Assembly (NCBI RefSeq): GCF_002259795.1
Contig: NZ_MWXA01000003.1
Span: 310,001-374,000, forward strand
DNA from: Bifidobacterium aquikefiri
Lineage (GTDB): Bacteria > Actinomycetota > Actinomycetes > Actinomycetales > Bifidobacteriaceae
Length of the DNA stretch: 64,000 nt
Reading direction: 5' to 3'
Shown: positions 46,175 to 63,778 of the stretch, piece after piece
Layout: each line of letters starts with the position of its first letter
How positions within the stretch are numbered: position 1 is the first letter of the stretch
Program-made: the position numbers and the translations under genes
Notes under the pieces: generated by a model
Database searches by the model: none
What the model was told of the DNA's origin: nothing
What the model saw: only the letters and a program-made list of their open reading frames with translations

Positions 46175-47791
46175 ATGGTATTTACTTGCAGGCAACTACT
46201 TGATGTACCAGAATTACACTTAACATTGGCATATGATGGTGGGAACAATGCCATGGAGCAGGGGATTATATGGGTACATCCGACTGATGTGATCAACGCT
46301 GCCGATTACGCCGAACAAGGCGAAATTCTGCTTACCTGTTCAACGAACTTTCCTTTGGAGAGCATGCAGAATGCCAACGATATCTCCCTGCTGAAACGTG
46401 ATTTGCGCAAACTCGGCCTCGCTGCCGATGTAAACGATGTTCAGCAGGCATATGAGACACTGTGGCTGCAGTATATGGCCACGCTCGCCCATGCTGGAGT
46501 TCTCGCCATCGGTTTCGGCATCAAGATGAAGCATCCGACGATTCCCAAGGCCATGCTTCAAGCGGCGATGGAATACCATATCATGCTCTTCGAAGTACCT
46601 GAAGACGTGAATTTTTCTGAAATCGTCAAGACTGTGCTGCATAGGCAGGCTGAAGAAAGCGAAGGCATTCAGCGCGTCATGTACAACGTTCAACGCGATC
46701 TGTTCCGTGCAACTGATAATGAGAATGTCATTGAGTCAGTCGTCAGGGAAAGTGCAAAAAGGGCAAATGGATGGGCTGCCTTTGTTAATCTCAAGGGAAG
46801 CATCATTTCGATTTCCGATGCAAGCAAATCTCAGCAGGCCACACATCTTTCCCTGCTGATGGTTCAGCAGGAGGAACAACGCTGCAACAGTGCAAAGACG
46901 TGTTTCTGCATATCCAAGGGAAGAAACCGATATTATCTCTGCATTGTTGAAGATGGAAAACGCAGGTTGGGAACAATCATCGTATCTTCGCAGGGTAATG
47001 GCGATAGCAACATAGCTCGAGCAGTCGGCATCTCCGCTGCCGATGCGCTTGCCTGGAGCTTGCCGTCGCGGATCGAAGAGCGCAAAAGAAGAATGCGCTT
47101 TGGCAATCTCGCTGTTGAACAGTTGGCTAGTGGCAATGTGGATCTTGCATCGTCGCTATTCAAAGAGCTTCATGCGAATGCCATATCGTTCCCCATGACC
47201 TTGTTCTGCATAGACCCGCAATCGACGGAGAGCGATTTCACGTCCCGCATGTGTGACGACATAGCCGACGACGGAGCGCTTTTCGGGCAATTCCAAGACT
47301 ATTACTGGATTCTTGCTCCTGCTCACCAGAGCGAACGCATTCGTACGTTGTTGGCCGATTCAGAGCGGATTCTCTCCGGCACTGCCACAATCAATGACTT
47401 TTCGAATGCCCCAGATGTTTTCGAGCTGGCACTGAAAGATTTGTGCATGCGAAGAATAGGCAGTCATGATTCGATAATTGACCTTTCTCCGCATGAGCTG
47501 GTGAGTCCTGAAATCGCTGCTGCGTATTCATCTGAACTGTTCGCTTTGGTGAGGAGTCTGCCGAAGAATGAGAAGAACCAGCTGATGCGCACGCTCAGGG
47601 AGCTGCTCTACACTGCATTCAATGTGGGAGCAGCCGCCAAAAGACTCGCTGTTCACCGCCATACCGTGGAGAATCGGATGAGTAAGCTGGAATCATTGCT
47701 TGGCCTTGATTTCACGAATGAGTCAGCGCGCGTGAAAGTTTGGATCGCATGCTCATTCATGCGTGACGAAGATATGTCAACATCACGTTAA
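46175..47791 (+). CDS. PucR-family regulator of the catabolic island
   Basis: A 538-residue regulator with the full PucR layout. The N-terminal PucR domain (VFTCRQLLDVPELHLTLAY, then the GWVHPTD-like IIWVHPTDVINAADY) covers residues about 1-120. A middle domain follows at about 150-420. The C-terminal helix-turn-helix is VGAAAKRLAVHRHTVENRM near 490. In other bacteria such proteins control purine, amino-acid or amine catabolism. The gene points into the island on the same strand, 262 bases ahead of the aminotransferase gene, and is the obvious candidate to control it. The frame opens at 46145; ATG 46175 fits the family start but lacks a clear Shine-Dalgarno. Confidence 0.85.
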   Translation: MVFTCRQLLDVPELHLTLAYDGGNNAMEQGIIWVHPTDVINAADYAEQGEILLTCSTNFPLESMQNANDISLLKRDLRKLGLAADVNDVQQAYETLWLQYMATLAHAGVLAIGFGIKMKHPTIPKAMLQAAMEYHIMLFEVPEDVNFSEIVKTVLHRQAEESEGIQRVMYNVQRDLFRATDNENVIESVVRESAKRANGWAAFVNLKGSIISISDASKSQQATHLSLLMVQQEEQRCNSAKTCFCISKGRNRYYLCIVEDGKRRLGTIIVSSQGNGDSNIARAVGISAADALAWSLPSRIEERKRRMRFGNLAVEQLASGNVDLASSLFKELHANAISFPMTLFCIDPQSTESDFTSRMCDDIADDGALFGQFQDYYWILAPAHQSERIRTLLADSERILSGTATINDFSNAPDVFELALKDLCMRRIGSHDSIIDLSPHELVSPEIAAAYSSELFALVRSLPKNEKNQLMRTLRELLYTAFNVGAAAKRLAVHRHTVENRMSKLESLLGLDFTNESARVKVWIACSFMRDEDMSTSR

Positions 47792-48053
47792 CTTCATATT
47801 GGTTCAGAAGTGCACATAATGTTGCGCCACAGCAACGCCTACGTGTTTGCTGAACCTGCAATAGCCGTAATCTCAGCTAAAATACGCAACCTTCATCGCA
47901 TTTCGTTTTTGTGTTACATGAGTCTGAATAGGACACAATATCCAATTCCTGGCACTTATGTGCTGAATTATCCATTGTTACTTCTTGCGCTCTCATGAAC
48001 AATGCCTCTTACAGACATCCATTCATTACATATTCAGGAAGAAGCATATTCAT

Positions 48054-49352
48054 ATGTCCAACGAACACGATGATTCAACAATCACATTTGAAGACTATGA
48101 ACAATTTCTCAGCCCAGCACTTTCGAAGGCAACAACCTTGGTCGCTGAGTCCGGTAAGGGAATGTATCTGACCGATGTGAAGGGCAAACGATATATCGAT
48201 TGGGTGCAGGGCATAGCAGTGAATGCACTCGGCCATGCACATCCAAGGGTTGTCGCGGCAGCAAAGGCTCAGATCGATAAGCTGATAACTGCCTCATTCA
48301 ATGTGGTGAATTATCCGACGACATTGAAGCTGGCGAAGAGAATTTCTCAATTCACGCCTGGTGACCTTAACTCGATGCTGTTTGCCAATGGCGGCGCGGA
48401 GGCAACTGATGGCGCCATTAAACTGGCTCGTGTCGTCACCAAACGTCCTGCAGTGATAGCGTTCAAAGGTTCATTCCATGGGCGCACCGTTGGAGCTATC
48501 AGCATCACCGCCTCGAACTCCTTCTACCGCAAGGGGATTGAGCCATTGATGGGCGGTGTATATTTCACGCCATATCCTTCCAAGGATTTATGCCCAGCTG
48601 GCTATGATGCGAAACAGCGTGCCGATTGGTGCCTTGGCGAAATTGAACGACTCTTCAAATATTGTGTTTCGCCCGATGAAGTCGCATGCATCTATGTGGA
48701 ACCGGTTCAGGGTGAAGGTGGCTATGTGGTTCCTGATCCGAGTTTCCTGAAGGGGCTGCGCGACATCTGCACCAAGCATGGAATCATGCTCGTCTTTGAC
48801 GAGATCCAATCCGGTTATGGGCGCACGGGCAAGATGTTTGCGAGCATGCACTCAGGAGTTGTTCCAGACATCATGACCGTTGGCAAGGCCATTGCCGGTG
48901 GCTTCCCCATGAGCGCAGTGATCTCCACCGAGAAAATAATGAACACCTGGCGTCCAGGAATGCATGGTGGAACCTTTGGGGGTAATCCTGTTGCAGGTGC
49001 TGCAGGTCTGGCTGTGCTCGATGAGTTCGAAGAGCACAACATCGTGGAACACGCTGCGCAAATGGGAGAGTACTTCAAGTCGAAGCTGTTCGAATTGCAG
49101 AAGAAATTCCCATGGATCGCCGATGTTCGCGGTGTCGGCATGATGCTGGCGATCGAATTCGGTTCGAAAGACGGCATGAGCGGTGCCGAGGTCTTCCACG
49201 CGGTGTCTCAACAAGCCTTGGAAAAAGGGCTTCTTCTGTTGGGTTGCGGTGCAGACCATGATGCGGTGAGATTCGCGGCTCCGTTGAACTCCACGATTGA
49301 TGACATTAATGAGGGACTCATGGTTTTTGAGGACGTACTTGCCTCAATCTGA
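48054..49352 (+). CDS. Class III aminotransferase (4-aminobutyrate/ornithine type)
   Basis: A 432-residue PLP enzyme that moves a terminal or omega-amino group to a keto acid, usually 2-oxoglutarate. It has the domain order of the family: DWVQGIAVNALGHAHP, the phosphate-binding FANGGAEATDGA in place of the more common NSGSEA, FHGRT, the glutamate of VEPVQGEGG, FDEIQSGYGRTG, and the cofactor lysine K278 in TVGKAIAGGFP. The nearest functional groups are 4-aminobutyrate and acetylornithine aminotransferases; the substrate is not fixed by sequence. GGAAGAAG precedes ATG 48054. It heads the island operon, 45 bases before the first permease gene, so its substrate is probably derived from the imported compound. 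Confidence 0.85.
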   Translation: MSNEHDDSTITFEDYEQFLSPALSKATTLVAESGKGMYLTDVKGKRYIDWVQGIAVNALGHAHPRVVAAAKAQIDKLITASFNVVNYPTTLKLAKRISQFTPGDLNSMLFANGGAEATDGAIKLARVVTKRPAVIAFKGSFHGRTVGAISITASNSFYRKGIEPLMGGVYFTPYPSKDLCPAGYDAKQRADWCLGEIERLFKYCVSPDEVACIYVEPVQGEGGYVVPDPSFLKGLRDICTKHGIMLVFDEIQSGYGRTGKMFASMHSGVVPDIMTVGKAIAGGFPMSAVISTEKIMNTWRPGMHGGTFGGNPVAGAAGLAVLDEFEEHNIVEHAAQMGEYFKSKLFELQKKFPWIADVRGVGMMLAIEFGSKDGMSGAEVFHAVSQQALEKGLLLLGCGADHDAVRFAAPLNSTIDDINEGLMVFEDVLASI

Positions 49353-49397
49353 GGCTGTTCGCAAGTTCATCGTAGTCCAGTAGCGAGGGAGTGATAT

Positions 49398-50348
49398 ATG
49401 GGTAGATATGTTGGGAAACGACTGCTTTCCGCAATACCTGTGTTATTCATCGTCGGCATAATTGCGTTTGTTTTATCTCATCTCAGTGGCGGCGATCCAG
49501 CACGAGTCGTTGCTGGAAATGATGCCACGCAGGCACAGGTTGAGGCAATCAGGCAACAGATGGGGCTGAACCAGAGTCTGCCCATTCAGCTGTGGCAGTG
49601 GATGATCAACATTTTTCATGGCAATCTCGGGTATTCCTATATTCTTGGTGAGCAAGTGACGCCAACGATTCTGTCCCATATTTTTCCAACATTGTCTGTT
49701 GCCTTGTTTGGCGAGGCCATCTCGCTCGTCGTGGCGATTCCGCTGGGAGTGCTGGCAGCTGACAAACATCGAAGAATAGCCGATAAAATCGTGTTGGCTT
49801 TTGCCACGCTCACCACATCGCTGCCAAGCTTTTTGGCCGGGTTGCTGCTGATGATTGTGTTCGTGTTGCAGCTCAAGCTGCTTCCAGCAAGTGGTTTTGT
49901 TGATCCCAACGAGGATTTTGCCGGGTATTTCAGTCATTTGATTCTTCCTGGAGTTTCTGTGGCAACATTACAGATAGCGATAATCTCGCGTATGACTCGA
50001 TCATCCATGATTGACGCATTGGGCAGTGACTATATGAGAACTGCATCCGCGAAAGGTCTGACACGTTCACGGCAGCTTTGGGTCCACGCATTCAAGAATT
50101 CCTCGATTCCGATTCTCACCATCATTGGTCAGTCCTTCGGCGAACTGATAGCTGGTGCCATAGTCGTTGAGACCGTGTTTGATGTTCCAGGCATTGGTCA
50201 ATTGGTGGTCAACTCAATTCTTCGACGCGATTACCAGATGATTCAGGGAATCATGATTTTTGTCGCCTTGGTCTTCATCATCGTCAATCTCATCACCGAT
50301 GTTCTCTATGCCGTCGTTGACCCAAGAATACGAGAAAGGTCGTTCTGA
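49398..50348 (+). CDS. Peptide/nickel-type ABC transporter permease (DppB-like)
   Basis: First permease subunit of the importer, 316 residues with six membrane helices. The N-terminal helix and the following extracytoplasmic loop (SGGDPARVVAGNDATQAQVEAIRQQ read in two parts) are typical of DppB/OppB. The ATPase-contact EAA loop is seen as DYMRTASAKGLTRS near residue 215. GAGGGAG lies ahead of ATG 49398. The second permease gene starts two bases after its stop, so the two are translationally coupled. Confidence 0.9.
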   Translation: MGRYVGKRLLSAIPVLFIVGIIAFVLSHLSGGDPARVVAGNDATQAQVEAIRQQMGLNQSLPIQLWQWMINIFHGNLGYSYILGEQVTPTILSHIFPTLSVALFGEAISLVVAIPLGVLAADKHRRIADKIVLAFATLTTSLPSFLAGLLLMIVFVLQLKLLPASGFVDPNEDFAGYFSHLILPGVSVATLQIAIISRMTRSSMIDALGSDYMRTASAKGLTRSRQLWVHAFKNSSIPILTIIGQSFGELIAGAIVVETVFDVPGIGQLVVNSILRRDYQMIQGIMIFVALVFIIVNLITDVLYAVVDPRIRERSF

Positions 50349-50350
50349 TT

Positions 50351-51229
50351 ATGGCCGAAGTCAATGTTGTTGCCAATGCGACACCATCGAAATTCAGCAA
50401 GCTTTCTTCCAAGTGGAGCGTGCTGAGAACTTCGCCAAGCACCCTCATCGGTGGAGTTCTTCTGTTGGTGATCGCGCTTGCCTGCATACTCATACCGTGG
50501 CTGGGCCACATGGACGGGACTACTACAAACACAGCCAACATGTTGCTTGCTCCCAGTGCCCGGCATCCGATGGGGACGGACAATGTTGGCAGAGACACCT
50601 TCACCAGAGTGCTTCTTGGAGGCAAGGCGTCACTGACTGTCGGTATCTCTGCCGCTGCAATAGCTGGAATCATTGGATTTATAGTGGGACTCTATTCAGC
50701 CTATTATTCCAAACTTGGATATCTGCTGATGCGTGTCTGCGATGGATTGATGGCCTTTCCAGCGATTCTGTTTGCCATTGTCTTCATCGGTGCCTTTGGA
50801 CAGAGCATGAGAAGCGTCATCCTATCGTTATCCATCGTCTTTATTCCTATGGTTGCACGAATAGTTCGTTCAGCCACGCTGAGCAATATGAATGAAAACT
50901 ATGTGCAGGTTCTGACGAATCTTGGTGCCGGAAGTTTTCGAATCTTATGGAGAAACATTGCTCTGAATGTCATTGGGGCATGGATCGTTGAGGTCACCTT
51001 CGTCTGTGCAGACGCGATTCTTGTTGAAGCTGCGATGAGTTTCATCGGTGCCGGCATTCCTCAGCCTCAAGCGAGCTGGGGCAACATGCTCTACGACAGC
51101 AGAACCTATATCTACTCGGCATGGTGGATGACGGTATTTCCCGGCCTGGCCCTGGCTTTTACGGTGTTCGTCATCAACATGTTGGGCGATGGGCTGCGCG
51201 AAGTATTCGATCCGAAAAGTAGGAGGTGA
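50351..51229 (+). CDS. Peptide/nickel-type ABC transporter permease (DppC-like)
   Basis: Second permease subunit, 292 residues. It has an N-terminal membrane helix (LIGGVLLLVIALACILIPWL), the periplasmic-loop motif HPMGTDNVGRDTFTRVLLGG typical of DppC/OppC, five further helices, and an EAA-type loop (NENYVQVLTNLGAGSFRI) near residue 180. ATG 50351 lies two bases after the upstream stop. The stop codon of this gene lies in the ribosome binding site of the first ATPase gene. Confidence 0.9.
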   Translation: MAEVNVVANATPSKFSKLSSKWSVLRTSPSTLIGGVLLLVIALACILIPWLGHMDGTTTNTANMLLAPSARHPMGTDNVGRDTFTRVLLGGKASLTVGISAAAIAGIIGFIVGLYSAYYSKLGYLLMRVCDGLMAFPAILFAIVFIGAFGQSMRSVILSLSIVFIPMVARIVRSATLSNMNENYVQVLTNLGAGSFRILWRNIALNVIGAWIVEVTFVCADAILVEAAMSFIGAGIPQPQASWGNMLYDSRTYIYSAWWMTVFPGLALAFTVFVINMLGDGLREVFDPKSRR

Positions 51230-51236
51230 AGTCACA

Positions 51237-52238
51237 ATGAACGACAGTCAACAAGAGCGGTCGCTCCCCGCTTCAACACAGATTTTGGAATCAGCTGAAA
51301 CTTCAAAGACCGTTGAGAATATTGAGCATGATGCTCGTGCGCTCTTGAAGGTGAACAATCTCAAGGTGGATTTCAGCAACTCCCGTCATCAGTGGACCAG
51401 AATAGTGCATGGAGTGAGCTTCGCGGTCGGCAAAGGTGAGATTCTCGGCATCGTTGGTGAGTCAGGGTGTGGAAAAAGCGTTACTGCTTTTTCGATCCTG
51501 CGCTTGCACGAACGGAGAACGACCCGGTACGAAGGCGCTATAACCTTTGAAGGTCATGACATATTTTCATTGGGGCAGAAGCAATTACGAACATTGCGTG
51601 GTGGCGATATAGGATTCATCTTCCAAAACCCCATGTCCAGCCTCAACCCGCTGCTGACCATAGGGCAACAGCTCAGAGAGACTGTACGTACTCACCAGCC
51701 TTCACTCAGCAAAAACGAAGTGGAGAGTAGCTGCATCGAAGCCTTGCACGATGCAGGCTCAGACAATCCTGAATCCTGGATGAAGCAATATCCTTATCAA
51801 TTTTCTGGTGGGATGCTGCAACGAGTCATGATCGGTATGGCATTGATCAATCATCCCAAGCTTCTGATTGCCGATGAACCCACAACCGCTCTGGATGTGA
51901 CCATTCAGATGCAGCTGCTCAAGGTGCTTCGTGACCTACGCAAAACGAGAGACATGAGCATTGTTCTCATCACTCATGATATGGGCGTTGTGGCTCAAAT
52001 GTGCGACCGGGTAGAGGTCATGTATCAGGGTCGCATTATGGAATCCGCGCCCGTGTCTGATATCTTTGCGCATCCTCGTAACCCTTATACGCAAGGTTTG
52101 CTGGCGGCGATACCGCCAATGGAAGGATTGCGACCCAAACGTCTGAAAACCGTATCTGATTTTCTCAAGCAGTCTGGCAGCGATCTATCACCCCATGGCA
52201 ATGTCATGGATCACGCCGCCTTCACTGCCAAGGAATAG
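51237..52238 (+). CDS. Peptide/nickel-type ABC transporter ATPase (DppD-like)
   Basis: First ATPase subunit, 333 residues. It shows Walker A GESGCGKS near residue 78, the Q-loop FQNPMSSLNP, the signature FSGGMLQR, Walker B LLIADEPTTALD and switch histidine ITHDMG. The C-terminus ends soon after NPYTQGLLAAIP and lacks the cysteine-rich oligopeptide-ATPase tail of classical DppD/OppD. AGGAGG at 51221-51226 lies ten bases ahead of ATG 51237; the longer frame from 51189 overlaps the permease gene and is less likely. Confidence 0.9.
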   Translation: MNDSQQERSLPASTQILESAETSKTVENIEHDARALLKVNNLKVDFSNSRHQWTRIVHGVSFAVGKGEILGIVGESGCGKSVTAFSILRLHERRTTRYEGAITFEGHDIFSLGQKQLRTLRGGDIGFIFQNPMSSLNPLLTIGQQLRETVRTHQPSLSKNEVESSCIEALHDAGSDNPESWMKQYPYQFSGGMLQRVMIGMALINHPKLLIADEPTTALDVTIQMQLLKVLRDLRKTRDMSIVLITHDMGVVAQMCDRVEVMYQGRIMESAPVSDIFAHPRNPYTQGLLAAIPPMEGLRPKRLKTVSDFLKQSGSDLSPHGNVMDHAAFTAKE

Positions 52239-52314
52239 AGGGCTTGATGCAACAGAGAGATGTGGAAAACAAGTGTTTCACGAACGGTGACGGACAAAGC
52301 GGGAAGGTGGCAAT

Positions 52315-53142
52315 GTGATAGGGCAACGTAAGGCTATACTCCAGGTCAACAGCATTACCAAGGATTTTGTAAGACGCGGTTTTACGAGCCGCGCACAGAC
52401 CGTGATGCGTGCGGTGAACAATGTTTCCTTGCAGTTATTCGCCAACCAGACATACGCCTTGGTTGGTGAGTCGGGCAGTGGAAAAAGCACGACGGGAAGA
52501 ATAATCTGCGCCTTGGAAAGACCAACTTCCGGTACGGTCGTATTCAACGATGAGAATTATACGGATTTTTCCGACCACCTTCTGCGCCAAAAGATCAGAG
52601 GCAACATACAGATGGTGTTGCAGGATCCATTCTCTTCGCTCAATCCTCGTAAAACCATAGAACATGCAGTTCTTGAAGCCCTTGAGATTCAAAAAATCGG
52701 GAAGAACCATTCTGAGCGACTCGATGCAGTGGTGGACATGATTGAGCGAGTTGGCCTTTCCAGCGGGATGATCAATCGTTATCCGCACCAATTCTCGGGT
52801 GGTCAGCTTCAACGTGTGAATATTGCCCGAGCGTTGGTAGTTCGTCCGAAAATCCTGATCCTTGACGAATCGGTCTCTGCTCTCGATGTCTCGGTACAGG
52901 CTCAGGTTCTGAATCTTTTGCAGGATTTGAAACAGGAATTCTCCCTGAGCTATCTCTTCATCACCCATGATCTGAGCGTTGTTCGATTTATTGCGGATCG
53001 CGTCGGAGTATTGCGAAAGGGCGAGCTCGTGGAGGAAGGAACCGTGGATGAGATATTCGACCATCCGCAAACCGACTACACGCAGAATCTGCTGTCAAGT
53101 ATTCCGATTCCCAATCCTGAACACCGCCAATTGGCGTTTTGA
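52315..53142 (+). CDS. Peptide/nickel-type ABC transporter ATPase (DppF-like)
   Basis: Second ATPase subunit, 275 residues. It has Walker A GESGSGKST near residue 50, the Q-loop LQDPFSSLNPR, signature FSGGQLQR, Walker B LILDESVSALD and switch ITHDLS. The start is GTG 52315, with GGAAGG seven bases ahead and no in-frame ATG alternative. Walker B has serine-valine after the catalytic glutamate where the sister protein has Pro-Thr; both are normal variants. It completes the ATPase pair. Confidence 0.9.
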   Translation: MIGQRKAILQVNSITKDFVRRGFTSRAQTVMRAVNNVSLQLFANQTYALVGESGSGKSTTGRIICALERPTSGTVVFNDENYTDFSDHLLRQKIRGNIQMVLQDPFSSLNPRKTIEHAVLEALEIQKIGKNHSERLDAVVDMIERVGLSSGMINRYPHQFSGGQLQRVNIARALVVRPKILILDESVSALDVSVQAQVLNLLQDLKQEFSLSYLFITHDLSVVRFIADRVGVLRKGELVEEGTVDEIFDHPQTDYTQNLLSSIPIPNPEHRQLAF

Positions 53143-53189: not shown

Positions 53190-54755
53190 ATGAACGCCTT
53201 AGGAAAGAAAATAATGGCCATAGGAGCTTCTGTGGCCGTGCTGTTCAGCCTTACGGCCTGCGGTTCCAGCAGCGCTTCATCGTCCAGCAAGGGGGTTGAT
53301 GGAGGAACAATCCATATTGCCCTCAACGCAACGGTAACCAGCCTGGATCCAATGATCACGGGTGCCTACGTTGCTCGAGACACCATGCGCAGCATGTATG
53401 AATCGCTGGTCACTCTCAAGCAGGACGGATCCGTTGGTCCATTGCTTGCAAAGAGTTACAAGGTCAGTTCTGATTTCAAGACCTTCACCTTCACACTTCG
53501 ATCAGGGGTGAAATTCCACAATGGTGAAACGATGAAGGCTTCTGATGTTGTAGCATCCATGCAGCGCTGGATCAAGCTTTCCCAGATTGGCAGCACATTC
53601 TTCACCGGTTCGACGGTCACCTCACCCGATGCCGATACGGTTGTCATCACATCTCCAAAACCAGTATCAACCGGCCTGTATCTGATGGCCGATACAGGAC
53701 GCATCGCCGCAATCATGCCAAAATCCGTGATCGACAAGGCAACCTCGACAGGTGTGACCGAATATGTCGGCACAGGTCCCTACGAGTTCAGTTCATGGGA
53801 CAAAGATAACAAGATAGTGCTCAAGAAGTTTGCCGACTACTCTTCTCCAACGGGTGCCACCAATGGATACACGGGCAAACGTGTTGCGCACGCCGACAAA
53901 CTCGAATTTGACTTCGTGACCGATGGCACAACCCGACTTTCAGGTACCTTGAGCGGTCAGTATCAGATTGGCTATTCTCTGGCCGATTCCCAGTATGCTC
54001 AGGCAAAGGCCAACTCAAGTTTGAAGGTCGAGAAGGACGAGATGCTTGAGACCCTTATCTTCAACAAGCAAGAAGGTCTGTTCAAGGACAACACCAAGTT
54101 GCGTCAGGCAATCCTGGCTGCGCTGAACATGTCGAAAATTGCGAAGGCTGGTCATCAAAACTCGGATCTGTATACGAACGATGGCGGTCTGATGCCAAAG
54201 AACAGCCCTCTTCGTTCGGACTCAAGTCTGGATAAATACAATGACCCAGACGCGGCAGCGGCCAAGAAGCTCATCAAGGAATCAGGATATAACGGTCAGA
54301 CCATCACTTTCCTGACCACCAAGGATTATCCATATATGTATGACGAAAGTATGGAGATTCAAAATGAGCTGAATGCGGTGGGCATCAAAACCAACATCCA
54401 GGTTCTGGATTGGGCGAGCGTGCTGCAAAAGATGTTCCAACCAGGCTCCTGGGACATGCTGATTTCCAGCTACAGCTACTCTGCGAACCCAATCAGTTAC
54501 TCATTCTTCCAGGCTTCGGGAGCTGGATGGAATACTGATCCAGAATTCAAAGAGATTGCTGACAGCATCAATGCCGCCACCACTGAGACTGCCCAGAAAG
54601 CTGGATACGATAAGCTTCAGGATTGGTTCTACACCTACGTTCCGAACATCATCGTGAGCAAGTATCAGCAGATCAGTGCCGTATCCACGAAACTCAATGG
54701 ATATTCCTCAGGAATGCAGGGGCCGGTGTATTACAACCTGCAGTTGAGCGAATAG
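53190..54755 (+). CDS. ABC transporter substrate-binding lipoprotein (SBP family 5)
   Basis: The extracytoplasmic receptor of the importer, 521 residues. The lipobox LTAC places the lipidated cysteine at residue 24, followed by a serine-rich tether (GSSSASSSS). The body has the family 5 peptide-binding fold: SLDPMITGAYVARDTMRSMYE at its start, FTLRSGVKFHNGE near 105, and VGTGPYEF near 195. Family members bind di- or oligopeptides, nickel or other small molecules, so the ligand is open. It is last in the transporter set, and a strong hairpin follows at 54778-54816. Confidence 0.9.
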   Translation: MNALGKKIMAIGASVAVLFSLTACGSSSASSSSKGVDGGTIHIALNATVTSLDPMITGAYVARDTMRSMYESLVTLKQDGSVGPLLAKSYKVSSDFKTFTFTLRSGVKFHNGETMKASDVVASMQRWIKLSQIGSTFFTGSTVTSPDADTVVITSPKPVSTGLYLMADTGRIAAIMPKSVIDKATSTGVTEYVGTGPYEFSSWDKDNKIVLKKFADYSSPTGATNGYTGKRVAHADKLEFDFVTDGTTRLSGTLSGQYQIGYSLADSQYAQAKANSSLKVEKDEMLETLIFNKQEGLFKDNTKLRQAILAALNMSKIAKAGHQNSDLYTNDGGLMPKNSPLRSDSSLDKYNDPDAAAAKKLIKESGYNGQTITFLTTKDYPYMYDESMEIQNELNAVGIKTNIQVLDWASVLQKMFQPGSWDMLISSYSYSANPISYSFFQASGAGWNTDPEFKEIADSINAATTETAQKAGYDKLQDWFYTYVPNIIVSKYQQISAVSTKLNGYSSGMQGPVYYNLQLSE

Positions 54756-54777
54756 TTTCTTGAAAAAGGAATGAGAG

Positions 54778-54816
54778 GCAGCCACGCCTTGACGGTTGAA
54801 ACTGTGGCGTGGCTGC
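54778..54816 (+). terminator. Hairpin between the binding-protein and amidase genes
   Basis: GCAGCCACGCC at 54778-54788 pairs perfectly with GGCGTGGCTGC at 54806-54816. The loop contains a further ACGGTT/AACTGT stem. No T run follows. It is more likely an mRNA-stabilising or partial-termination element favouring the receptor over downstream enzymes. It also argues against a start of the amidase at 54771. Confidence 0.6.
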
Positions 54817-54893
54817 TACGTATCCATAAGATTTCCATGTATCACTGTAATTTTCGTATCTTCAACACGTCTGCAATCCGAAAGAGTGAGGCT

Positions 54894-56945
54894 ATGCATT
54901 CGATGGCAAATTCCGCGAGTGGTGAATCTCAACGAGACGTATGTGAGTTGAGCATAGGCGAGATGAAATCCATGCTGGCATCTGGTCGCATCACTTCCAC
55001 AGAGCTTGTGGTGAATTATTTGAATAGGCTGTTTTTTTACGATGTCAATGGTATCCAGCTCAATTCAACCCCAATCATTGCAGCCACTGCCTTGCATGAG
55101 GCCATGGTGAAGGATTCGCAACGTGACCATGGCGATGTCCAGGGACCCTTGCATGGCATTCCGTATACGGTGAAAGACAGTTATATGGCCAAAGGCATGA
55201 CGATGGCAGCCGGATCACCGGCCTTTGCGCATGTTGTGGCCAATGAAGACAGTTTTTCTGTTGCTGCACTGCGCAAGGCCGGCGCGATTTTGCTCGGGCG
55301 AACCAATATGCCACCCATGGCAGCTGGAGGAGTGCAACGTGGAATATATGGAAGGTCTGAAAGTCCATATAATGGCGAATATTTGCCGGCAGCATGGTAT
55401 TCGGGTTCCTCGCATGGTTCGGTAGTGTCGACCGCGGCAAGTTTTGCCGCCTTCGGCATGGGGGAGGAAACCGTTTCTTCCGGGCGTTCGCCGGCAGCCA
55501 ACAATGGTGTCGTGGCATATACTCCTACGAGAGGTGTCATCTCGCTGCGTGGCAATTGGGTGCTGCATGCCACGAAGGATGAAGTAGTGCCGCATACTCG
55601 CAATGTCGATGATCTTCTTGAGCTGTTGCCAACGCTGACACAGGCTGATGAAGACACCAGGGGGGATCTGTGGAGAAGGCAGTCATGTGTTCGACTTGAT
55701 GATGCCGCACGCGTTCAAGACCTTGGCTTCGATCGAGTGAAGGGAGCAGACGTTCTTTCCGGGCTTAACATCGGTGTCGTCAATGAATATGCAGGACGCA
55801 TCGGGGGTGTGATTCCCTCGGTCTACACCCGGCCAAGCATCAATGCGTTGCTCATGCAGTCGATTCAATCCCTGCAGCAACTGGGCGCTCATGTCAGATG
55901 GACATCATTGCCTTTGCGCGACGCCTATGAGATTGCACCGAGAAACCTCAAGACTTTTGCCGATGAAGGACTCATTCCTCACGATTGGATGGATCACGAA
56001 TGGCTCCAGCTCAATGCATCGGTTCTTGAAGAGTTCATTACATCCTTTAGCATGAGCGGCATCACCAGTCTGCAGGATGTTGACCCCGACGACATATTCC
56101 CCAACCCCTTCAACTCCGTGGCACAGACGAAACACTGGCGCTATGGCTTCTACCGGCAGGCATATGAATACATGCGTTCAGGGGCGATGCTTCCCTCGGA
56201 GCAGACCCCTGAACTCAAACAGGGTCTTCGAGGCCTTGAAACCATACGAAAGCGCCATCTTGAAGCATGGATGCGCGCCGAAAACCTGGATGTGCTTATT
56301 TTTCCAACGAACAGCAATGTTGCCAAGGCCGATTGTGATGTGGACGATGTTGACAACGTCGAGGCCTGGCAGGATGGAACATGGTTTTCCAACGGCAATA
56401 GATTCATCCGTCATCTGGGGATACCGACGGTGACGACAACGATGGGTGTGATGTCCGATACAGGCATTCCTGCGGGACTGACCTTTATGGGACCGTCGGG
56501 AAGTGATCAGCTGCTGTTATCGTGTGCCTACGAATTTGAAAAGGCCACATCGTTGCGGGTATCTCCGAGACGCACCCCACCACTTCCCGCCGCTGGCAGA
56601 ATTCCCCTGAACGATGGCTCGGCACAGCCGCATGTCGAGCAGGTTGATGCTGGGGCGCTTCATGCAACTCTTGAAGTCACGATTGGCAATGGTTCAATTG
56701 ACTATGGTGTGCGCATGCTCGACCCCGATAGGCGGTATTCCTGCCGAATCTTCATCAATGGCGTACTCATGCACGAATGGTCGCGTGATGATTCCTGGCA
56801 TGGATCACTCTCGCTCGCAGCGGTGTTTGATGCCAGAAAAATTGCCGTGATCGCACTGTATTCGAGCTTGGACCGAAGTTTGGGCGCCGACATTCGTGTG
56901 TGCGACAATCCTGCGCCAAGCCATGGTGAGGGGTCGTTGCTGTGA
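54894..56945 (+). CDS. Amidase-signature family protein
   Basis: A 683-residue protein of the Ser-cisSer-Lys amidase superfamily, which hydrolyses carboxamides. The catalytic lysine is in GIPYTVKDSY near residue 94. The cis-serine region is GSSHGS near 172, and the nucleophile region is EETVSSGRSPAANNG near 195. In typical members these read GGSSGGS and TDTGGSIR, so the active site is recognisable but altered. After the amidase fold (to about 560) comes a further domain of about 110 residues with no clear family. No signal peptide is seen. The frame opens at 54771; ATG 54894 (or 54903) is preferred, since the hairpin at 54778-54816 lies before it. It probably cleaves an imported amide. Confidence 0.8.
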   Translation: MHSMANSASGESQRDVCELSIGEMKSMLASGRITSTELVVNYLNRLFFYDVNGIQLNSTPIIAATALHEAMVKDSQRDHGDVQGPLHGIPYTVKDSYMAKGMTMAAGSPAFAHVVANEDSFSVAALRKAGAILLGRTNMPPMAAGGVQRGIYGRSESPYNGEYLPAAWYSGSSHGSVVSTAASFAAFGMGEETVSSGRSPAANNGVVAYTPTRGVISLRGNWVLHATKDEVVPHTRNVDDLLELLPTLTQADEDTRGDLWRRQSCVRLDDAARVQDLGFDRVKGADVLSGLNIGVVNEYAGRIGGVIPSVYTRPSINALLMQSIQSLQQLGAHVRWTSLPLRDAYEIAPRNLKTFADEGLIPHDWMDHEWLQLNASVLEEFITSFSMSGITSLQDVDPDDIFPNPFNSVAQTKHWRYGFYRQAYEYMRSGAMLPSEQTPELKQGLRGLETIRKRHLEAWMRAENLDVLIFPTNSNVAKADCDVDDVDNVEAWQDGTWFSNGNRFIRHLGIPTVTTTMGVMSDTGIPAGLTFMGPSGSDQLLLSCAYEFEKATSLRVSPRRTPPLPAAGRIPLNDGSAQPHVEQVDAGALHATLEVTIGNGSIDYGVRMLDPDRRYSCRIFINGVLMHEWSRDDSWHGSLSLAAVFDARKIAVIALYSSLDRSLGADIRVCDNPAPSHGEGSLL

Positions 56946-57050: not shown

Positions 57051-58694
57051 ATGTTTGCCATAGACACCATATTTGAGAATGCACATGTTCAGACCATGGA
57101 TCCCAAGCATCCCTATGCTACGGCGATAGGGGTGCATCATGGGAAAATCGTTGCCATTGATGATGAACTTGAAGGTGTGAGTGCCAAAGAACGTGTTGAT
57201 TTACAAGGAAAATATGTGTGCCCGGGCTTTAACGATGTGCATCTGCATTTCTCATTATTGGGCGCAAATCTGAATCAGGTGGATTTACGCAAGCAAACGA
57301 TATCAACCATGGATGAGCTTTATGCCAAGGTTGAGTCTGCATGCATTCAAGCTCCGGAAGGGCAGTGGGTGCTTGGCTGGGGTTTTGACCAGTTCTCGCT
57401 GGGTGCATTCCCCGACATTGCACGGCTTGACCAGATATCGCATGGTCATCCCGTGCTCATCCTGCATCTTTCGAACCATGCAGCGGTAATCAACAGTGAG
57501 GCATTCAGGCGTGCTGGATATGAACATCCTGAAGATATCGAAGACACGGATCTCGTCATTCGAGAAAAGGGGAGGATCACCGGCCTGGTCAAAGATAAAT
57601 TCTGCTTCATGGTCACCGGTGTGGCCAACCGGGTCTCAGAAGAGATTTTGCTGCATCAGCTCCGTCTTGCGGCAGACTACACGCTGGCGTTGGGCATTAC
57701 CAGTTTTACCGATGGGGGAACAGGCACCGATCCCCACTGGGAAGGCATCGGCCAGACACCCGATGATGCTGGACTATTCCAAGCTGCCTATGATCGCGGC
57801 CTCATCCAGCAGCGTGGCACTCTCATGCCGTATTACAGTTCATTCCATGATCTTGGAGAGCTTACTGGAGACATTACGGAGGGTTTCGGCCTTGACCTCG
57901 GTATCCGTACCGGCTTCGAAGGCGGCATGCTTGACATCGGGCCGGCAAAGGTCATTCTTGACGGTGCTTTCAACAGTCTCTCGGCATACTTGAGTGAACC
58001 ATATCTGGGGTACTCGGACAACTATGGTGTGCTCAGCTGGGATCCAGAGGAGTTCAAACATCACGTTGCGCAACTGCACCGCCAGGGATGGCGTGTGGCA
58101 GTTCACGCAATTGGAGACAGAGCCGTGAATCTGGCCTTGGATGCGTTCGAGCATGCCCAGAATCTTTATCCAAGAAAGGATGTCCGTCACCGGCTCGAGC
58201 ATTGCGGGATTGCGGATGACGCAATGGTTGACCGCATCGTCCGGGATGGAGTCATCGCCAATCCACAGGGAAGCTTCATCAAGAACAATGGCGATGCGTA
58301 TGTCGAGCTATTGGGGGAGGAGCGAGCGCGAAGAGCATACCGGATGGGTGCCTTTGTGAGTCGGGGAGCAATCATTCCGGGCAGCACCGATGCCCCGTGT
58401 GCACCAGTTGCTCCCATGGTTTCGATTGAAGGCATGGTGACGCGAACAACCGCCCATGGCTTTGTCCTTGGTGAGAGCGAGAAGCTCTCAGTTGATCAGG
58501 CGCTGAGCGCATATACCTATGGAAGCGCATATGCGTCGCATAAGGAGCATGTTCTTGGCAGTATCAGCGCCGGCAAATTCGCTGATTTCTCTGTGCTCGA
58601 TCATGATCCCCATGATGTGCCAGCCGATGAGCTTCACAAGATCGGTGTGCTCCAGACAATCATCAACGGTGTGACTCGATATTCACGGATGTGA
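57051..58694 (+). CDS. YtcJ-like metal-dependent amidohydrolase
   Basis: A 547-residue member of the amidohydrolase superfamily (Amidohydro_3/YtcJ group). Features are the N-terminal beta-sandwich part (FENAHVQTMDPKHPYATAIGV), the first metal motif PGFNDVHLHF near residue 66, a metal histidine in VAVHAIGDRAVNLAL near 350, the histidine of HRLEHCG, and the late aspartate in GSTDAPCAP near 445. Relatives hydrolyse N-substituted formamides or amides and imide rings. The natural substrate here is unknown; it may act before or after the amidase-signature protein. AGGGGA precedes ATG 57051. Confidence 0.85.
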   Translation: MFAIDTIFENAHVQTMDPKHPYATAIGVHHGKIVAIDDELEGVSAKERVDLQGKYVCPGFNDVHLHFSLLGANLNQVDLRKQTISTMDELYAKVESACIQAPEGQWVLGWGFDQFSLGAFPDIARLDQISHGHPVLILHLSNHAAVINSEAFRRAGYEHPEDIEDTDLVIREKGRITGLVKDKFCFMVTGVANRVSEEILLHQLRLAADYTLALGITSFTDGGTGTDPHWEGIGQTPDDAGLFQAAYDRGLIQQRGTLMPYYSSFHDLGELTGDITEGFGLDLGIRTGFEGGMLDIGPAKVILDGAFNSLSAYLSEPYLGYSDNYGVLSWDPEEFKHHVAQLHRQGWRVAVHAIGDRAVNLALDAFEHAQNLYPRKDVRHRLEHCGIADDAMVDRIVRDGVIANPQGSFIKNNGDAYVELLGEERARRAYRMGAFVSRGAIIPGSTDAPCAPVAPMVSIEGMVTRTTAHGFVLGESEKLSVDQALSAYTYGSAYASHKEHVLGSISAGKFADFSVLDHDPHDVPADELHKIGVLQTIINGVTRYSRM

Positions 58695-60116: not shown

Positions 60117-60185
60117 AGTGTGAATTGAAGTGTGACTTGATGTGTGAATAGTGTTGCGCAATCTGAAATTGAAAGGTGAAGTCCA

Positions 60186-61229
60186 ATGAAAGCAACCGTA
60201 TATAAAGGGGAACGCCGGGTCGAGCTGGAGGAAGTTCCAGATGCCGCAATAGCCAAATGTTCCGATGCCGTGGTTGACATCGAGTATGCAGGTGTGTGTG
60301 GTTCAGATCTGTGGACATATCGAGGTCAGGGAGCATCTGCACCCAGCAGGATAGGTCATGAATTCGTTGGCACCGTCCGTGAAGTGGGATCAGAGGTATC
60401 TTCCGTCAAACCTGGCGATTGGGTCATCGTTCCCTTTCGCTATAGCGATGGCGTATGCCGCTATTGCCAGAAAGGCTTAGAAACCAGCTGCATTCATGGA
60501 GGCTTCTGGGGCAGGGAGAGCGTCGATGCCGGTCAGGGCGAGGCGGCATGCGTCCCTTATGCCGATGACACCCTGGTTAAGGCACTGCCTGATGGGAGTC
60601 GTCCGGACGAGGGCATCATTGCAAGCCTGTTGACACTCAGCGATGTGTTTACCACCGGATATCACGCAGCCACATGCTCCAGAATCCGCAGTGGCGATAC
60701 CGTTGTTGTGGTGGGAGACGGGGCTGTAGGACTCTGCGCGATCATGGCGGCGCGATTACTTGGTGCCTCACACATTATCAATGCCGGGAGCAGCCATGAG
60801 GACCGACATCTTCTTGCCAAGGCATGTGGAGCCGATGAAGTGATTTCCGCTCGTGGCGACGATGCAGTGAAGGCGGTTGAAACACTGACATCGGGCCATA
60901 TGCCTGATGAAGTGCTTGAATGCGTCGGCTCTGCGCAGTCATTCTCCACGGCGATCTCGATGTGCGCTCCAGGAGGATCGGTGAGCTACGTCGGCTTGCC
61001 ACATGGAGTTGACATCGATGTGAAAAGTCTGTTCTACAACAACATAACGGTTACCGGCGGCATGTCGCCAGCGCATCATTACATCGCCAGGCTGTTGCCA
61101 CAGATTCTCGACAAGTCAATCAATCCAGGACTGGTCTATACCAAGGAATACCGATTGAAAGACATCGCCACGGCATACGAGGACATGGATAATCGTCGCA
61201 CGATCAAACCCCTGATCAAGGTCGGCTGA
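60186..61229 (+). CDS. Zinc-dependent medium-chain alcohol dehydrogenase
   Basis: A 347-residue MDR-family oxidoreductase that interconverts alcohols and aldehydes or ketones with NAD(P). The catalytic zinc ligands are the cysteine in AGVCGSDLW near residue 38 and the histidine-glutamate in IGHEFVG near 59. A structural-zinc segment, VCRYCQKGLETSC, keeps three cysteines rather than the usual four. The nucleotide-binding loop is VVGDGAVGLCA near 176. AAAGGTGA lies ahead of ATG 60186. It is six bases ahead of the kinase gene. It could reduce or oxidise the aldehyde made by the phospho-lyase. Confidence 0.88.
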   Translation: MKATVYKGERRVELEEVPDAAIAKCSDAVVDIEYAGVCGSDLWTYRGQGASAPSRIGHEFVGTVREVGSEVSSVKPGDWVIVPFRYSDGVCRYCQKGLETSCIHGGFWGRESVDAGQGEAACVPYADDTLVKALPDGSRPDEGIIASLLTLSDVFTTGYHAATCSRIRSGDTVVVVGDGAVGLCAIMAARLLGASHIINAGSSHEDRHLLAKACGADEVISARGDDAVKAVETLTSGHMPDEVLECVGSAQSFSTAISMCAPGGSVSYVGLPHGVDIDVKSLFYNNITVTGGMSPAHHYIARLLPQILDKSINPGLVYTKEYRLKDIATAYEDMDNRRTIKPLIKVG

Positions 61230-61235
61230 TGGCAT

Positions 61236-62351
61236 ATGGGCATAGAATCATATGAAGGATATAGAGCACTCTGCGAACCGCATGAAAGAATCAGCGAGCA
61301 TGATGCTCTCATTTTCCTGAAAGATCAATATAGGCTGAGCAATATCACGCTGCGACGCATCATGACCGAGCGGGACGACACATTCAGCGTGAGCGTTGCC
61401 CAGTCGACAAGGCCGAAATGGATATTGAAGATTGAGCATCCGTCAGAGAGCCGTGAGGCGGTGCTCATGCGTGCGCAAGCAATTCGTAGTTTCGAAGAGC
61501 TCGATTCATCGCTGCCCGTCACCCGGATCTTCGCAAACAGATCAGATGCTCTGGTATCCGCGATGGAACGGCAGAATCACACGCGATATGCGACGTTGAC
61601 CTCATTCGTTGCTGGTGAAGTGCTCTCGCATATGAGAGAGCCCGCCTCGGATCTTCTGCTTTTCAATATGGGCCAGGCATTGGCGCGAATTGAGCTGGTT
61701 TTGGCGAAGCAGCAATCCTGTGAGGATCATCTCGGTCGAGTGCTGTGGGACATGAGGCTTTTCCCGGAGATATGTGAGGCCACACTTCCTGCAATCTCCG
61801 ACAGCCATATGAGGAAGCCAATAGAACGAGCCCTTGACGATTATCTGACCATCCACAAGCGTGTGTGTGGGCTCCCGGAATATATGTGTCATGGTGATTT
61901 TCATCCTGGAAATGTGATGGTGGATTCGAATATGCCGAATGTCATTGCGGGAATCATCGATTTTGGCGACATGCACAGGATGCCATTGATCTGCGATGTG
62001 GCGACATGCCTATGCTATGCCATCGCTACTCATGCCGGTGTCGACACTGCACTCGCGCCGTGCAGACGAATACTTCAAGGGTATTCCTGGCAGCTTTCAG
62101 CGCATGACGATGATCAGCGCCGTTACGCACGATCAACAAGTCTGATGCATCTCAGTGATGAAGATTACTCGCTGCTGCCTATCCTGATTGAGGTGAGGAG
62201 CGCGCTTGCCGTAATTCTTCCGTATCTGGCACAGACTCTTGCGGGCGTGGATGCCTCGCATTACATCGCAAATCCAGAGACTCGTCTGAGACGGTTGATA
62301 ACCGTGCAGAATATTGGTCACAGAGAATGTGAAGCACAGCTTCAGCCATAA
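61236..62351 (+). CDS. APH-fold small-molecule kinase (possible amino-alcohol/hydroxylysine kinase)
   Basis: A 371-residue protein with the aminoglycoside phosphotransferase fold. The nucleotide-side lysine is in WILKIEHPSES near residue 69, the catalytic loop is CHGDFHPGNVMVD near 219 (HxDxxxxN), and the metal aspartate is in IIDFGDMH near 239. Relatives phosphorylate homoserine, choline, hydroxylysine and similar amino alcohols. Resistance to aminoglycosides is not implied. It sits six bases behind the dehydrogenase gene and 47 bases ahead of a phospho-lyase-like enzyme. That combination matches hydroxylysine kinase plus phosphohydroxylysine phospho-lyase in animals and bacteria. The substrate is inference. 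Confidence 0.75.
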   Translation: MGIESYEGYRALCEPHERISEHDALIFLKDQYRLSNITLRRIMTERDDTFSVSVAQSTRPKWILKIEHPSESREAVLMRAQAIRSFEELDSSLPVTRIFANRSDALVSAMERQNHTRYATLTSFVAGEVLSHMREPASDLLLFNMGQALARIELVLAKQQSCEDHLGRVLWDMRLFPEICEATLPAISDSHMRKPIERALDDYLTIHKRVCGLPEYMCHGDFHPGNVMVDSNMPNVIAGIIDFGDMHRMPLICDVATCLCYAIATHAGVDTALAPCRRILQGYSWQLSAHDDDQRRYARSTSLMHLSDEDYSLLPILIEVRSALAVILPYLAQTLAGVDASHYIANPETRLRRLITVQNIGHRECEAQLQP

Positions 62352-62398
62352 CGGTTGTAAGAGGTGACGGTGCTGATGGCAATACGAAAGGAAAAACT

Positions 62399-63778
62399 AT
62401 GACAGCAGATACGGCAGGCATGGCATCACAGGCTGTGCAAGGCAAGAAACAGGTTTCCAATGCGTTCGATTTCCACAAGGGCATGGCATCCTTGAGTGAT
62501 GACGAGCGAGCGCTGATAGAACGGCGGAAACGGATCTTGGGAACCATGGGTCCGCTGTTCTATGACCGGCCGGTGCATATAGTGCGCGGGCAGGCAGCGC
62601 ATCTCTTCGACGCATCCGGCAATGATTATCTGGATTGCTATAACAATGTCGCATGCGTTGGCCATGCAAACCCACGGGTACGTGAAGCGGTCAACGATCA
62701 ACTGGGCCTTCAAGACACGCATTCCAGGTATGTGCAGGATGAGATTCTTGACTATGGGGAGCGAATTCTGAGCTACTTTCCTACTGCCATGGATCGAGTG
62801 AACTTTACCAACTCTGGGTCGGAATCCAACGATCTTGCCCTGCGCATGGCTCGTGTATTTACGGGTCATCAGGGAGTAGTAGTGACAACAAATGCCTATC
62901 ATGGCATTACGTCGCTCGTCTCTTCGGTCTCTCCAAGTTTTGGTACGGGCGTGCCGCTGGCGCCTTTTCTTGCAACCGTCGAGATTGCCGATGTATTGAC
63001 GGGTGATCTGCCTGAGAGTCAGGTCAACGACATATTGCAACAACGCTTTGCATGTGCGTTTCAGAAACTTCACGATGGTGGATTTGGCGTATCTGCAGTC
63101 TTGCTGGATCAGATTTTCTCTTCCGACGGCATTCTTCCAGGGGCGCCAGGCTGGGTGAATCATATTGCTCAGGCTGTTCATCGTGTTGGCGGCATACTTA
63201 TCGCGGACGAAGTGCAATCGGGATTCGCCCGCACAGGAGAAGCCTTCTGGGGTTTTCAGCGGCATCATGCAGATGCGGATATTGCCACAATTGGCAAACC
63301 GATGGCGAATGGAATCCCCACCGGTGCCGTCATCTATAAACACCAGATAGGCGAGGCCTTTGCCTCGTGCACCCGGTATTTCAATACTTTCGGCGGCAAT
63401 CCCGTATCCATGAGAGCCGCAGAGGCAGTACTCGACGAGATTGAAGACCGGCACCTGCTCGCCCACGCGCAGCAAATCGGTGAGCAGCTCGATGCACAAC
63501 TTCATCAGCTGCTTGGCGGAACTTCACGGTTTCGCGGCATGCGTCATGCTGGCCTGTTTCTTGGCATCGATATAGGCAGCAGTGATTCAGCCAGTTCGGA
63601 TCCTCAGGCAACGCGGGCAATTATCAACAGGTTACGTGATATGTTCATTCTCATATCATCGTCTGGTCCCGATGGCAGCACACTGAAACTCCGTCCCCCT
63701 CTGGTGTTCTCTTCCGCGGACGTGGATCGTTTCATGCAAGCCTGCTCCACGCTCGTCGATGAGGGATATTTTGGGTGA
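62399..63778 (+). CDS. Class III PLP enzyme resembling amine-phosphate phospho-lyases
   Basis: A 459-residue protein with the class III aminotransferase fold but closest in pattern to ethanolamine-phosphate and 5-phosphohydroxylysine phospho-lyases, which eliminate phosphate and ammonia. Typical of that branch are IERRKRILG near residue 40, IVRGQAAHLFDASGNDYLDCYNNVACVGH, THSRYVQDEILDYGERI, TRYFNTFGGNPVS and SSSGPDGSTLKLRPPLVFS, each read in part. NSGSESNDLALR is present near 140, and the cofactor lysine is K300 in ATIGKPMANG. GAAAGGA precedes ATG 62399. The kinase gene lies just upstream. An ordinary aminotransferase cannot be ruled out by eye. Confidence 0.8.
   Translation: MTADTAGMASQAVQGKKQVSNAFDFHKGMASLSDDERALIERRKRILGTMGPLFYDRPVHIVRGQAAHLFDASGNDYLDCYNNVACVGHANPRVREAVNDQLGLQDTHSRYVQDEILDYGERILSYFPTAMDRVNFTNSGSESNDLALRMARVFTGHQGVVVTTNAYHGITSLVSSVSPSFGTGVPLAPFLATVEIADVLTGDLPESQVNDILQQRFACAFQKLHDGGFGVSAVLLDQIFSSDGILPGAPGWVNHIAQAVHRVGGILIADEVQSGFARTGEAFWGFQRHHADADIATIGKPMANGIPTGAVIYKHQIGEAFASCTRYFNTFGGNPVSMRAAEAVLDEIEDRHLLAHAQQIGEQLDAQLHQLLGGTSRFRGMRHAGLFLGIDIGSSDSASSDPQATRAIINRLRDMFILISSSGPDGSTLKLRPPLVFSSADVDRFMQACSTLVDEGYFG

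What the first reader, a model, noticed from the sequence alone, without database searches (positions are those of the whole stretch)
46175..63778. Accessory catabolic island for an amide- or peptide-linked amino alcohol
Twelve same-strand genes combine a PucR regulator, two class III PLP enzymes, a full family 5 ABC importer, an amidase-signature protein, a YtcJ-like amidohydrolase, an MFS carrier, an alcohol dehydrogenase and an APH-fold kinase. The parts suggest import, amide cleavage, phosphorylation, elimination of phosphate and ammonia, and redox handling of the aldehyde. I know of no described bifidobacterial pathway with this make-up. The substrate could be hydroxylysine peptides, ethanolamides or a related compound.
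Basis: inference. Interest (0 to 1): 0.75.

Follow-up and report, generated by a model that had tools for sequence, protein, structure and literature searches.

The report
Amino-alcohol breakdown cluster in bifidobacteria
A few bifidobacteria carry a conserved set of thirteen genes that most likely imports a small molecule containing an amide-bound amino alcohol, cuts it, and removes its nitrogen by adding and then eliminating a phosphate; the molecule itself is not yet known.

Summary
In detail: 13 (not 12) same-strand genes at 46175-63778. The last two are the firmest part. PLP2 lies in the class III phospho-lyase family: the two solved phospholyases score 316 and 279 bits, the best transaminase 138, and PLP2 has 33 of 39 residues that mark other lyases off from transaminases. 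The APH kinase beside it is fused to such a lyase elsewhere. The cluster recurs in 8 of 189 family genomes, a reduced importer-kinase-lyase form in further ones. Loci in unrelated bacteria combine kinase and lyase with Opp-type importers and non-homologous amide hydrolases. The genome has a separate ethanolamine-type cluster, and PLP2 falls outside that clade, so free ethanolamine is unlikely. PLP1 looks like an omega-amino transaminase, not a second lyase. The locus is accessory: its usual site, between pepN and glmM, is empty in 25 of 27 genus genomes, the window's included. Best reading: import and cleavage of an amide conjugate, then phosphorylation and elimination to an aldehyde. The substrate is open. 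New variant of a known kind.

The parts
46175..47791 (+). PucR-type regulator; the frame can also start at 46145
   Evidence: Pfam PucR 57 bits and HTH_30 55 bits; the G005 orthologue begins at the residue that matches 46175
48054..49352 (+). PLP1, class III transaminase of the omega-amino type
   Evidence: PRK08117 594.9 bits over cut-off 574; GABA transaminase TIGR00700 394 under 506.65; best solved relatives GabT and PuuE
49398..50348 (+). OppB-type permease
   Evidence: Pfam BPD_transp_1; Opp2B 298 bits under cut-off 350
50351..51229 (+). OppC-type permease
   Evidence: Pfam BPD_transp_1 and OppC_N
51231..52238 (+). OppD-type ATPase (frame 51189-52238; start uncertain)
   Evidence: Pfam ABC_tran and oligo_HPY
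52315..53142 (+). OppF-type ATPase
   Evidence: Pfam ABC_tran and oligo_HPY
53190..54755 (+). family 5 solute-binding lipoprotein
   Evidence: Pfam SBP_bac_5 229 bits; lipobox-like LTAC read by eye from the translation
54771..56945 (+). amidase-signature protein; true start may be further in
   Evidence: Pfam Amidase 163 bits; PRK06565 565.9 bits, just under cut-off 575; orthologues outside G005 align from residue 32-57
57051..58694 (+). YtcJ-like amidohydrolase
   Evidence: Pfam Amidohydro_3 273 bits
58794..60116 (+). MFS carrier
   Evidence: Pfam MFS_1 107 bits
60186..61229 (+). zinc-type medium-chain alcohol dehydrogenase
   Evidence: Pfam ADH_N and ADH_zinc_N
61236..62351 (+). APH-fold kinase
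   Evidence: Pfam APH 96 bits; PRK06148 residues 8-269 at 111 bits; catalytic motifs invariant in 11 orthologues; model and fold search
62399..63778 (+). PLP2, class III phospho-lyase
   Evidence: 5g4i 316 bits, 6tor 279, best transaminase 138; PRK06148 residues 582-1005 at 351 bits; lyase-marking residues

Best explanation
The cluster takes in a small amide- or peptide-like conjugate through an Opp-type importer. In the cell the amidase and/or the YtcJ-like hydrolase cut amide bonds and free a 1,2-amino alcohol. The APH-fold kinase phosphorylates its hydroxyl. PLP2 then eliminates phosphate and ammonia and leaves an aldehyde, which the alcohol dehydrogenase handles, probably by reduction in this fermenter. 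PLP1 probably transaminates a terminal-amine product of the same conjugate. PucR controls the genes; the MFS carrier moves a substrate or product. Resting on strong homology: importer class, kinase class, phospho-lyase class. Inferred only: the order of steps, that the hydrolases supply the kinase, the role of PLP1, the direction of the dehydrogenase, the substrate. Free ethanolamine is probably not the substrate.
For: PLP2 scores far above transaminases with solved phospholyases and has 33 of 39 residues that separate 34 other lyases from 9 transaminases. Kinase and PLP2 match the two ends of the PRK06148 fusion and are one protein in G508 and in Natribaculum luteum. The cluster is kept together across species. 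The nearest PLP2 relatives outside the family (G508, G432; 100/97 in the tree) have two amidase matches and an ADH match at 44-48% in the same stretch. Amide hydrolases: 8 of 28 lyase loci, 0 of 18 other stretches. All 4 of 21 plasmid loci with Opp-type genes also have amide hydrolase genes. PLP1 and amidase travel together in B. tibiigranuli.
Against: No activity, expression or ligand data. 20 of 28 lyase loci of the order and 13 of 21 plasmid loci show no amide hydrolase, and the 8 positives include near relatives. G155 and G156 keep importer, kinase and PLP2 without amidase, YtcJ, ADH or PLP1 nearby, so the lower steps do not need them. In B. tibiigranuli the amidase is not at the kinase locus. 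Two amidase-bearing loci, L134 and L138, have ethanolamine-clade lyases and no kinase match. The Thioclava lyase branches at the base of the ethanolamine clade.
Confidence: 0.62

Rival explanations
1. Catabolism of a free amino alcohol (ethanolamine or 1-amino-2-propanol) that needs no amide cleavage; the hydrolases and PLP1 process unrelated peptides or amides.
Against: The genome has a separate ethanolamine-type cluster. PLP2 is outside that clade. Opp-type importers with family 5 binding proteins usually carry peptides or larger solutes (recalled).
Confidence: 0.2
2. The kinase acts on a sugar, amino sugar or drug-like amine and PLP2 is an ordinary transaminase; the two are not sequential.
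Against: Lyase-marking residues and score gap; kinase-lyase fusions; the pair is retained where other genes are absent.
Confidence: 0.1
3. Hydroxylysine peptide catabolism: the conjugate is a peptide, the freed residue is 5-hydroxylysine, and the product is aminoadipate semialdehyde.
Against: No peptidase in the cluster; the window genome fits a water-kefir species, where collagen is not expected (inference).
Confidence: 0.08

Closest known systems
Ethanolamine-phosphate phospho-lyases: human ETNPPL (6tor) and the phospholyase 5g4i (recalled as A1RDF1 of Arthrobacter aurescens)
   Same: PLP2 shares the family, the lyase-marking residues and the expected elimination of phosphate and ammonia
   Different: PLP2 forms its own clade with an Arg where the ethanolamine clade has Pro; the solved enzymes have Met or Glu there; PLP2 works beside an Opp importer and amide hydrolases
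Ethanolamine-type cluster of the same genome (L060: GntR, lyase, permease, kinase)
   Same: Kinase plus class III lyase logic
   Different: APC permease instead of ABC importer, another kinase group, no amide hydrolase among the neighbours listed, lyase 41-43% identical to PLP2
RMM/Aut aminopropanol microcompartment loci
   Same: Phosphotransferase and class III-like aminotransferase in one locus (PMC4207490 and PMC6620236, passages); solved aminopropanol kinase 6ef6 is among the nearest folds
   Different: No shell proteins among the 13 genes, no SDR in the window; the cited papers propose other roles for these two proteins, so the kinase-lyase reading of that system is partly recalled
PRK06148/PRK06149 fusion proteins (kinase, middle part, class III enzyme)
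   Same: The window kinase matches the N-terminal end and PLP2 the C-terminal end
   Different: Split into two genes; no middle part (a peptidase domain in memory); far below the whole-protein cut-offs
Mammalian hydroxylysine kinase and phosphohydroxylysine phospho-lyase
   Same: Kinase then class III ammoniophospholyase (recalled; reference seen)
   Different: No sequence comparison made here; no evidence for hydroxylysine as the substrate
PbfA, hydroxy-aminoethylphosphonate ammonia-lyase
   Same: A class III enzyme that eliminates instead of transaminating (PMC8154272, passages)
   Different: PLP2 scores 147 bits with the PbfA model, cut-off 525; no phosphonate genes among the 13

Membership tests
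Class III phospho-lyase family | Class III aminotransferase fold family | tested here: met
   Pfam Aminotran_3 217.8 bits
Class III phospho-lyase family | Closer to solved phospholyases than to transaminases | tested here: met
   316 and 279 bits against 138
Class III phospho-lyase family | Residues conserved in lyases and absent from transaminases | tested here: met
   33 of 39 positions derived from 34 other lyases; 35 of 36 when PLP2 and its kin are part of the set
Class III phospho-lyase family | Elimination of phosphate and ammonia | not testable with these tools
   Needs purified enzyme
Ethanolamine kinase-lyase cluster | Lyase inside the ethanolamine-type clade | tested here: not met
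   PLP2 groups with G508 and G432 (100/97), apart from the clade with 14 of 17 rows labelled ethanolamine type
Ethanolamine kinase-lyase cluster | Ethanolamine permease beside it | tested here: not met
   Transport genes are an Opp importer and an MFS carrier
RMM/Aut microcompartment locus | Shell proteins in the locus | tested here: not met
   None of the 13 proteins has a shell-protein match in Pfam; the rest of the genome was not searched
PRK06148 fusion protein | Whole-protein score over cut-off 1128 | tested here: not met
   111 bits (kinase) and 351 bits (PLP2), as separate genes
GABA transaminase TIGR00700 (PLP1) | Score over cut-off 506.65 | tested here: not met
   394 bits; PRK08117 is met, 594.9 over 574
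Amidase PRK06565 (54771-56945) | Score over cut-off 575 | tested here: not met
   565.9 bits, a narrow miss
Opp-type (family 5) ABC importer | Binding protein, two permeases and two ATPases together | tested here: met
   SBP_bac_5, BPD_transp_1 twice, ABC_tran with oligo_HPY twice

The most novel reading that the evidence does not exclude
A recurrent, undescribed kind of pathway for amide-bound hydroxy-amines: Opp-type importers and interchangeable, non-homologous amide hydrolases (amidase, YtcJ, histone-deacetylase-like, nitrilase-like, hydantoinase) feed a kinase and an arginine-type phospho-lyase whose substrate carries an acidic group and so differs from ethanolamine. Bifidobacteria would use it as a nitrogen source and an electron sink.
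Probability: 0.28. Interest if true: 0.7.

Novelty: new variant of a known kind. Interest (0 to 1): 0.52.

Why it matters
Bifidobacteria are studied mainly for their use of sugars. This cluster points to a way of taking nitrogen, and perhaps disposing of electrons, from amide-bound amino alcohols without vitamin B12 chemistry or a microcompartment. The same parts list recurs in distant bacteria, so finding the substrate once could explain many clusters now annotated only as phosphotransferase plus aminotransferase. Kinase and lyase are single soluble proteins, so the question is directly testable.

Tried and rejected
Free ethanolamine as the substrate: lowered, because of the separate C11 cluster and the tree. 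PLP1 as a second phospho-lyase: rejected by scores; the two lyase motifs scanned for were absent from all PLP1-type rows except one stray match in G023. Recent island by base composition: not supported; G+C is 51.4% in the island, 54.8% to its left, and 52.0% for the likely genome (table of PMC11500810). Insertion at tRNA-Gly as a rule: not supported; no tRNA in the 9 fetched stretches scanned, from G000, G005, G023, G106, G138 and G142. Integrases were not searched for. Naming the substrate from the binding protein failed; its best solved relatives bind varied ligands. A profile of 11 kinases against PDB found only aminoglycoside and spectinomycin kinases at weak scores. Consensus scans: 17 promoter-like sites against 18.0 in shuffles, 19 terminator-like against 14.8. 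PADLOC had no match for kinase or PLP2. Outside the family the amidase has only general relatives at 40-52% (80 of the 395 other genomes searched) and YtcJ 40-43% relatives in 3; neither points to a substrate. Papers on hydroxylysine kinase, the 5g4i enzyme and aminopropanol kinase were not held.
Full report
WHAT IS THERE. Thirteen + strand genes fill 46175-63778: PucR, PLP1, OppB, OppC, OppD, OppF, a family 5 binding lipoprotein, an amidase-signature protein, a YtcJ-like amidohydrolase, an MFS carrier, a zinc-type alcohol dehydrogenase, an APH-fold kinase and PLP2. Families are from Pfam and NCBIfam. From PLP1 to PLP2 the gaps are 1-105 bases; PucR is set off by 262. The contig ends 940 bases past the window.

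HOST. The genome has 2,408,364 bases in 18 contigs, which fits B. aquikefiri LMG 28769 (2.41 Mbp, 18 contigs) in a table of PMC11500810, of which I saw passages. G005 (2,359,920 bases, one contig) fits B. aquikefiricola (2.36 Mbp) there. G023 has a contig of 73,236 bases, as has B. psychraerophilum. These names are inferences from size and contig number.

PLP1 IS NOT A SECOND LYASE. It passes PRK08117 (594.9 over 574) and misses GABA transaminase TIGR00700 (394 under 506.65); GabT and PuuE are its best solved relatives. Its main locus has PLP1, Opp, binding protein, YtcJ, an SDR, ADH, kinase and PLP2 but no amidase or MFS. So amidase and PLP1 may work together.

DISTRIBUTION. A kinase match was found in 3 of 27 genomes of the genus. 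PLP2 at 63% or more was found in 12 of 189 genomes of the family: 8 of the window type (G000, G005, G023, G106, G115, G138, G142, G170) and 4 of genus g6 (G153, G155, G156, G157). G115 was seen only from ADH to PLP2 in its own locus. G155 and G156 have PucR, an Opp importer at 28-41%, a binding protein at 26-27%, kinase (39%) and PLP2 (65-66%), without amidase, YtcJ, ADH or PLP1 in the 20 kb fetched; in G156 an MFS gene (58%) lies on the far side of RNase J and pepN. In G157 and G153 contig ends cut the view: G157 shows OppF, binding protein, kinase and PLP2, G153 only PLP2. By my count of listed rows, 38 of 189 genomes have a lyase at 41-47%, 352-405 bits.

ACCESSORY STATUS. In 25 of 27 genus genomes, the window's included, glmM and pepN lie 101-465 bases apart; in G023 they are 18.2 kb apart with the cluster between, in G007 8.7 kb apart. 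G015 and G024, nearest to G023 by glmM identity, have the site without the cluster. The cluster is next to or within a few genes of glmM in B. ramosum, B. simiiventris, B. subtile, B. tibiigranuli and G157, and next to pepN in G138, G155 and G156. In the window genome and G005 it lies elsewhere. So the locus comes and goes, with one preferred site; whether by repeated gain or by loss is open.

SEPARATE ETHANOLAMINE-TYPE CLUSTER. At G000:C11 (L060) a GntR regulator, a lyase 41-43% identical to PLP2, a permease with 331 bits to the ethanolamine permease model TIGR00908 (cut-off 381.75, so not passed) and a kinase lie together. That lyase scores 343 bits with human ETNPPL. In a tree of 75 rows (5 of them transaminases) the bifidobacterial PLP2 group (12 rows, 100/100) joins two f9 genomes, G508 and G432 (100/97), and stays apart from the clade that holds 14 of the 17 rows I labelled ethanolamine type. 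The solved lyases were not in the tree, and the Thioclava lyase branches at the base of that clade.

AMIDE LINK. I took 28 of the 32 lyase places outside the family listed and compared them with 18 other stretches (20 asked for, 2 did not exist), mostly from the same genomes. At least one of ten amide hydrolase queries matched in 8 of 28 and in 0 of 18 (Fisher p 0.012). All 8 are among the 17 loci without an EtnKin-type kinase match, none among the 11 with one (p 0.008). These figures are optimistic: L145-L147 are near relatives, as are L106 and L107; L134 and L138 have ethanolamine-clade lyases and no kinase match; and most queries were chosen from lyase loci. L106 and L107, the nearest relatives of PLP2 outside the family, each show two amidase matches and an ADH match (44 and 48%). 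Of 21 plasmid loci (taken from the top and along the ranking), 4 have Opp-type genes by similarity, and all 4 hold amide hydrolase genes: Chelatococcus (histone deacetylase family, Zn-dependent hydrolase), a Comamonadaceae plasmid (two histone deacetylase family proteins, Zn-dependent hydrolase, N-formylglutamate amidohydrolase; only one Opp-type ATPase in view), Roseomonas (amidase, allantoate amidohydrolase) and Thioclava (amidase). Four more show a hydrolase, the last two about 5 kb away on the other strand; 13 show none.

A POSSIBLE SPECIFICITY MARK. Just before the YFNTFGG motif PLP2 has Arg326. Of 88 lyase rows, 37 have Arg, 41 Pro, 4 Gly, 1 Ser, and 5 lack the pattern. Pro rows that are in the tree lie in the ethanolamine clade; Arg rows include the window group, the f9 group and the four Opp-type plasmid loci, so Arg is spread over several branches and may be the older state. 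The solved lyases have Met (5g4i) and Glu (6tor) there (alignment). That this residue touches the substrate is a guess.

MECHANISM. Best supported: import, amide cleavage, phosphorylation, elimination of phosphate and ammonia, aldehyde handling. The classes of importer, kinase and lyase rest on homology; the order of the steps, the hand-over from hydrolase to kinase, the role of PLP1 and the direction of ADH are inference. The substrate is open.

KNOWN SYSTEMS. Kinase plus class III lyase is known for hydroxylysine and phosphoethanolamine in mammals (recalled; title seen). Aminopropanol microcompartment loci hold a phosphotransferase and an aminotransferase (PMC4207490, PMC6620236, passages), and PMC6787980 cites a study of the aminopropanol kinase (passage); PMC6620236 itself proposes other roles for these two proteins. 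Ten searches (listings) showed no report of such a cluster in bifidobacteria; the library is open access only.

VERDICT. A real, conserved, accessory catabolic cluster.

Noticed in passing
L060 7017-12301 (G000:C11): Separate cluster in the same genome: GntR regulator, phospho-lyase, ethanolamine-type permease, kinase. A lyase of this kind is in 38 of 189 family genomes by my count; I know of no report of B12-free ethanolamine use in bifidobacteria, and one search (listing) showed none.
   Followed up: partly
L106 8086-10530 and L119 5942-8278: Kinase and phospho-lyase fused in one protein in an actinobacterium and in the haloarchaeon Natribaculum luteum.
   Followed up: partly
window 62399-63778, residue 326 of PLP2: Arg or Pro at this position splits 78 of 88 lyase rows into two kinds that follow the type of locus.
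   Followed up: partly
L129 12231-17000 and L061 2-12945 (G142:C27): B. tibiigranuli has a second, differently built set: PucR, PLP1, amidase, GABA-type transaminase, nitrilase-like protein, YtcJ relative, kinase, lyase, PucR.
   Followed up: partly
G007:C1 490604-499280: In another genus member 8.7 kb lies in the pepN-glmM gap where the cluster sits in G023, so the gap may be an insertion hot spot.
   Followed up: no
L145, L146, L147: Lyase loci of family f6 with an SDR, an APC-type permease and a YtcJ relative (27-28%); they recall aminopropanol-type loci. Shell proteins were not looked for.
   Followed up: no
window 45171-45244: tRNA-Gly (tcc) about 0.9 kb before the first gene; not seen beside the cluster in the other stretches scanned.
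   Followed up: partly
L009 4500-4940 (window 64500-64940): The contig end shows similar short peptide runs in several frames on both strands, as a repeat would; this may be why the assembly stops there.
   Followed up: no
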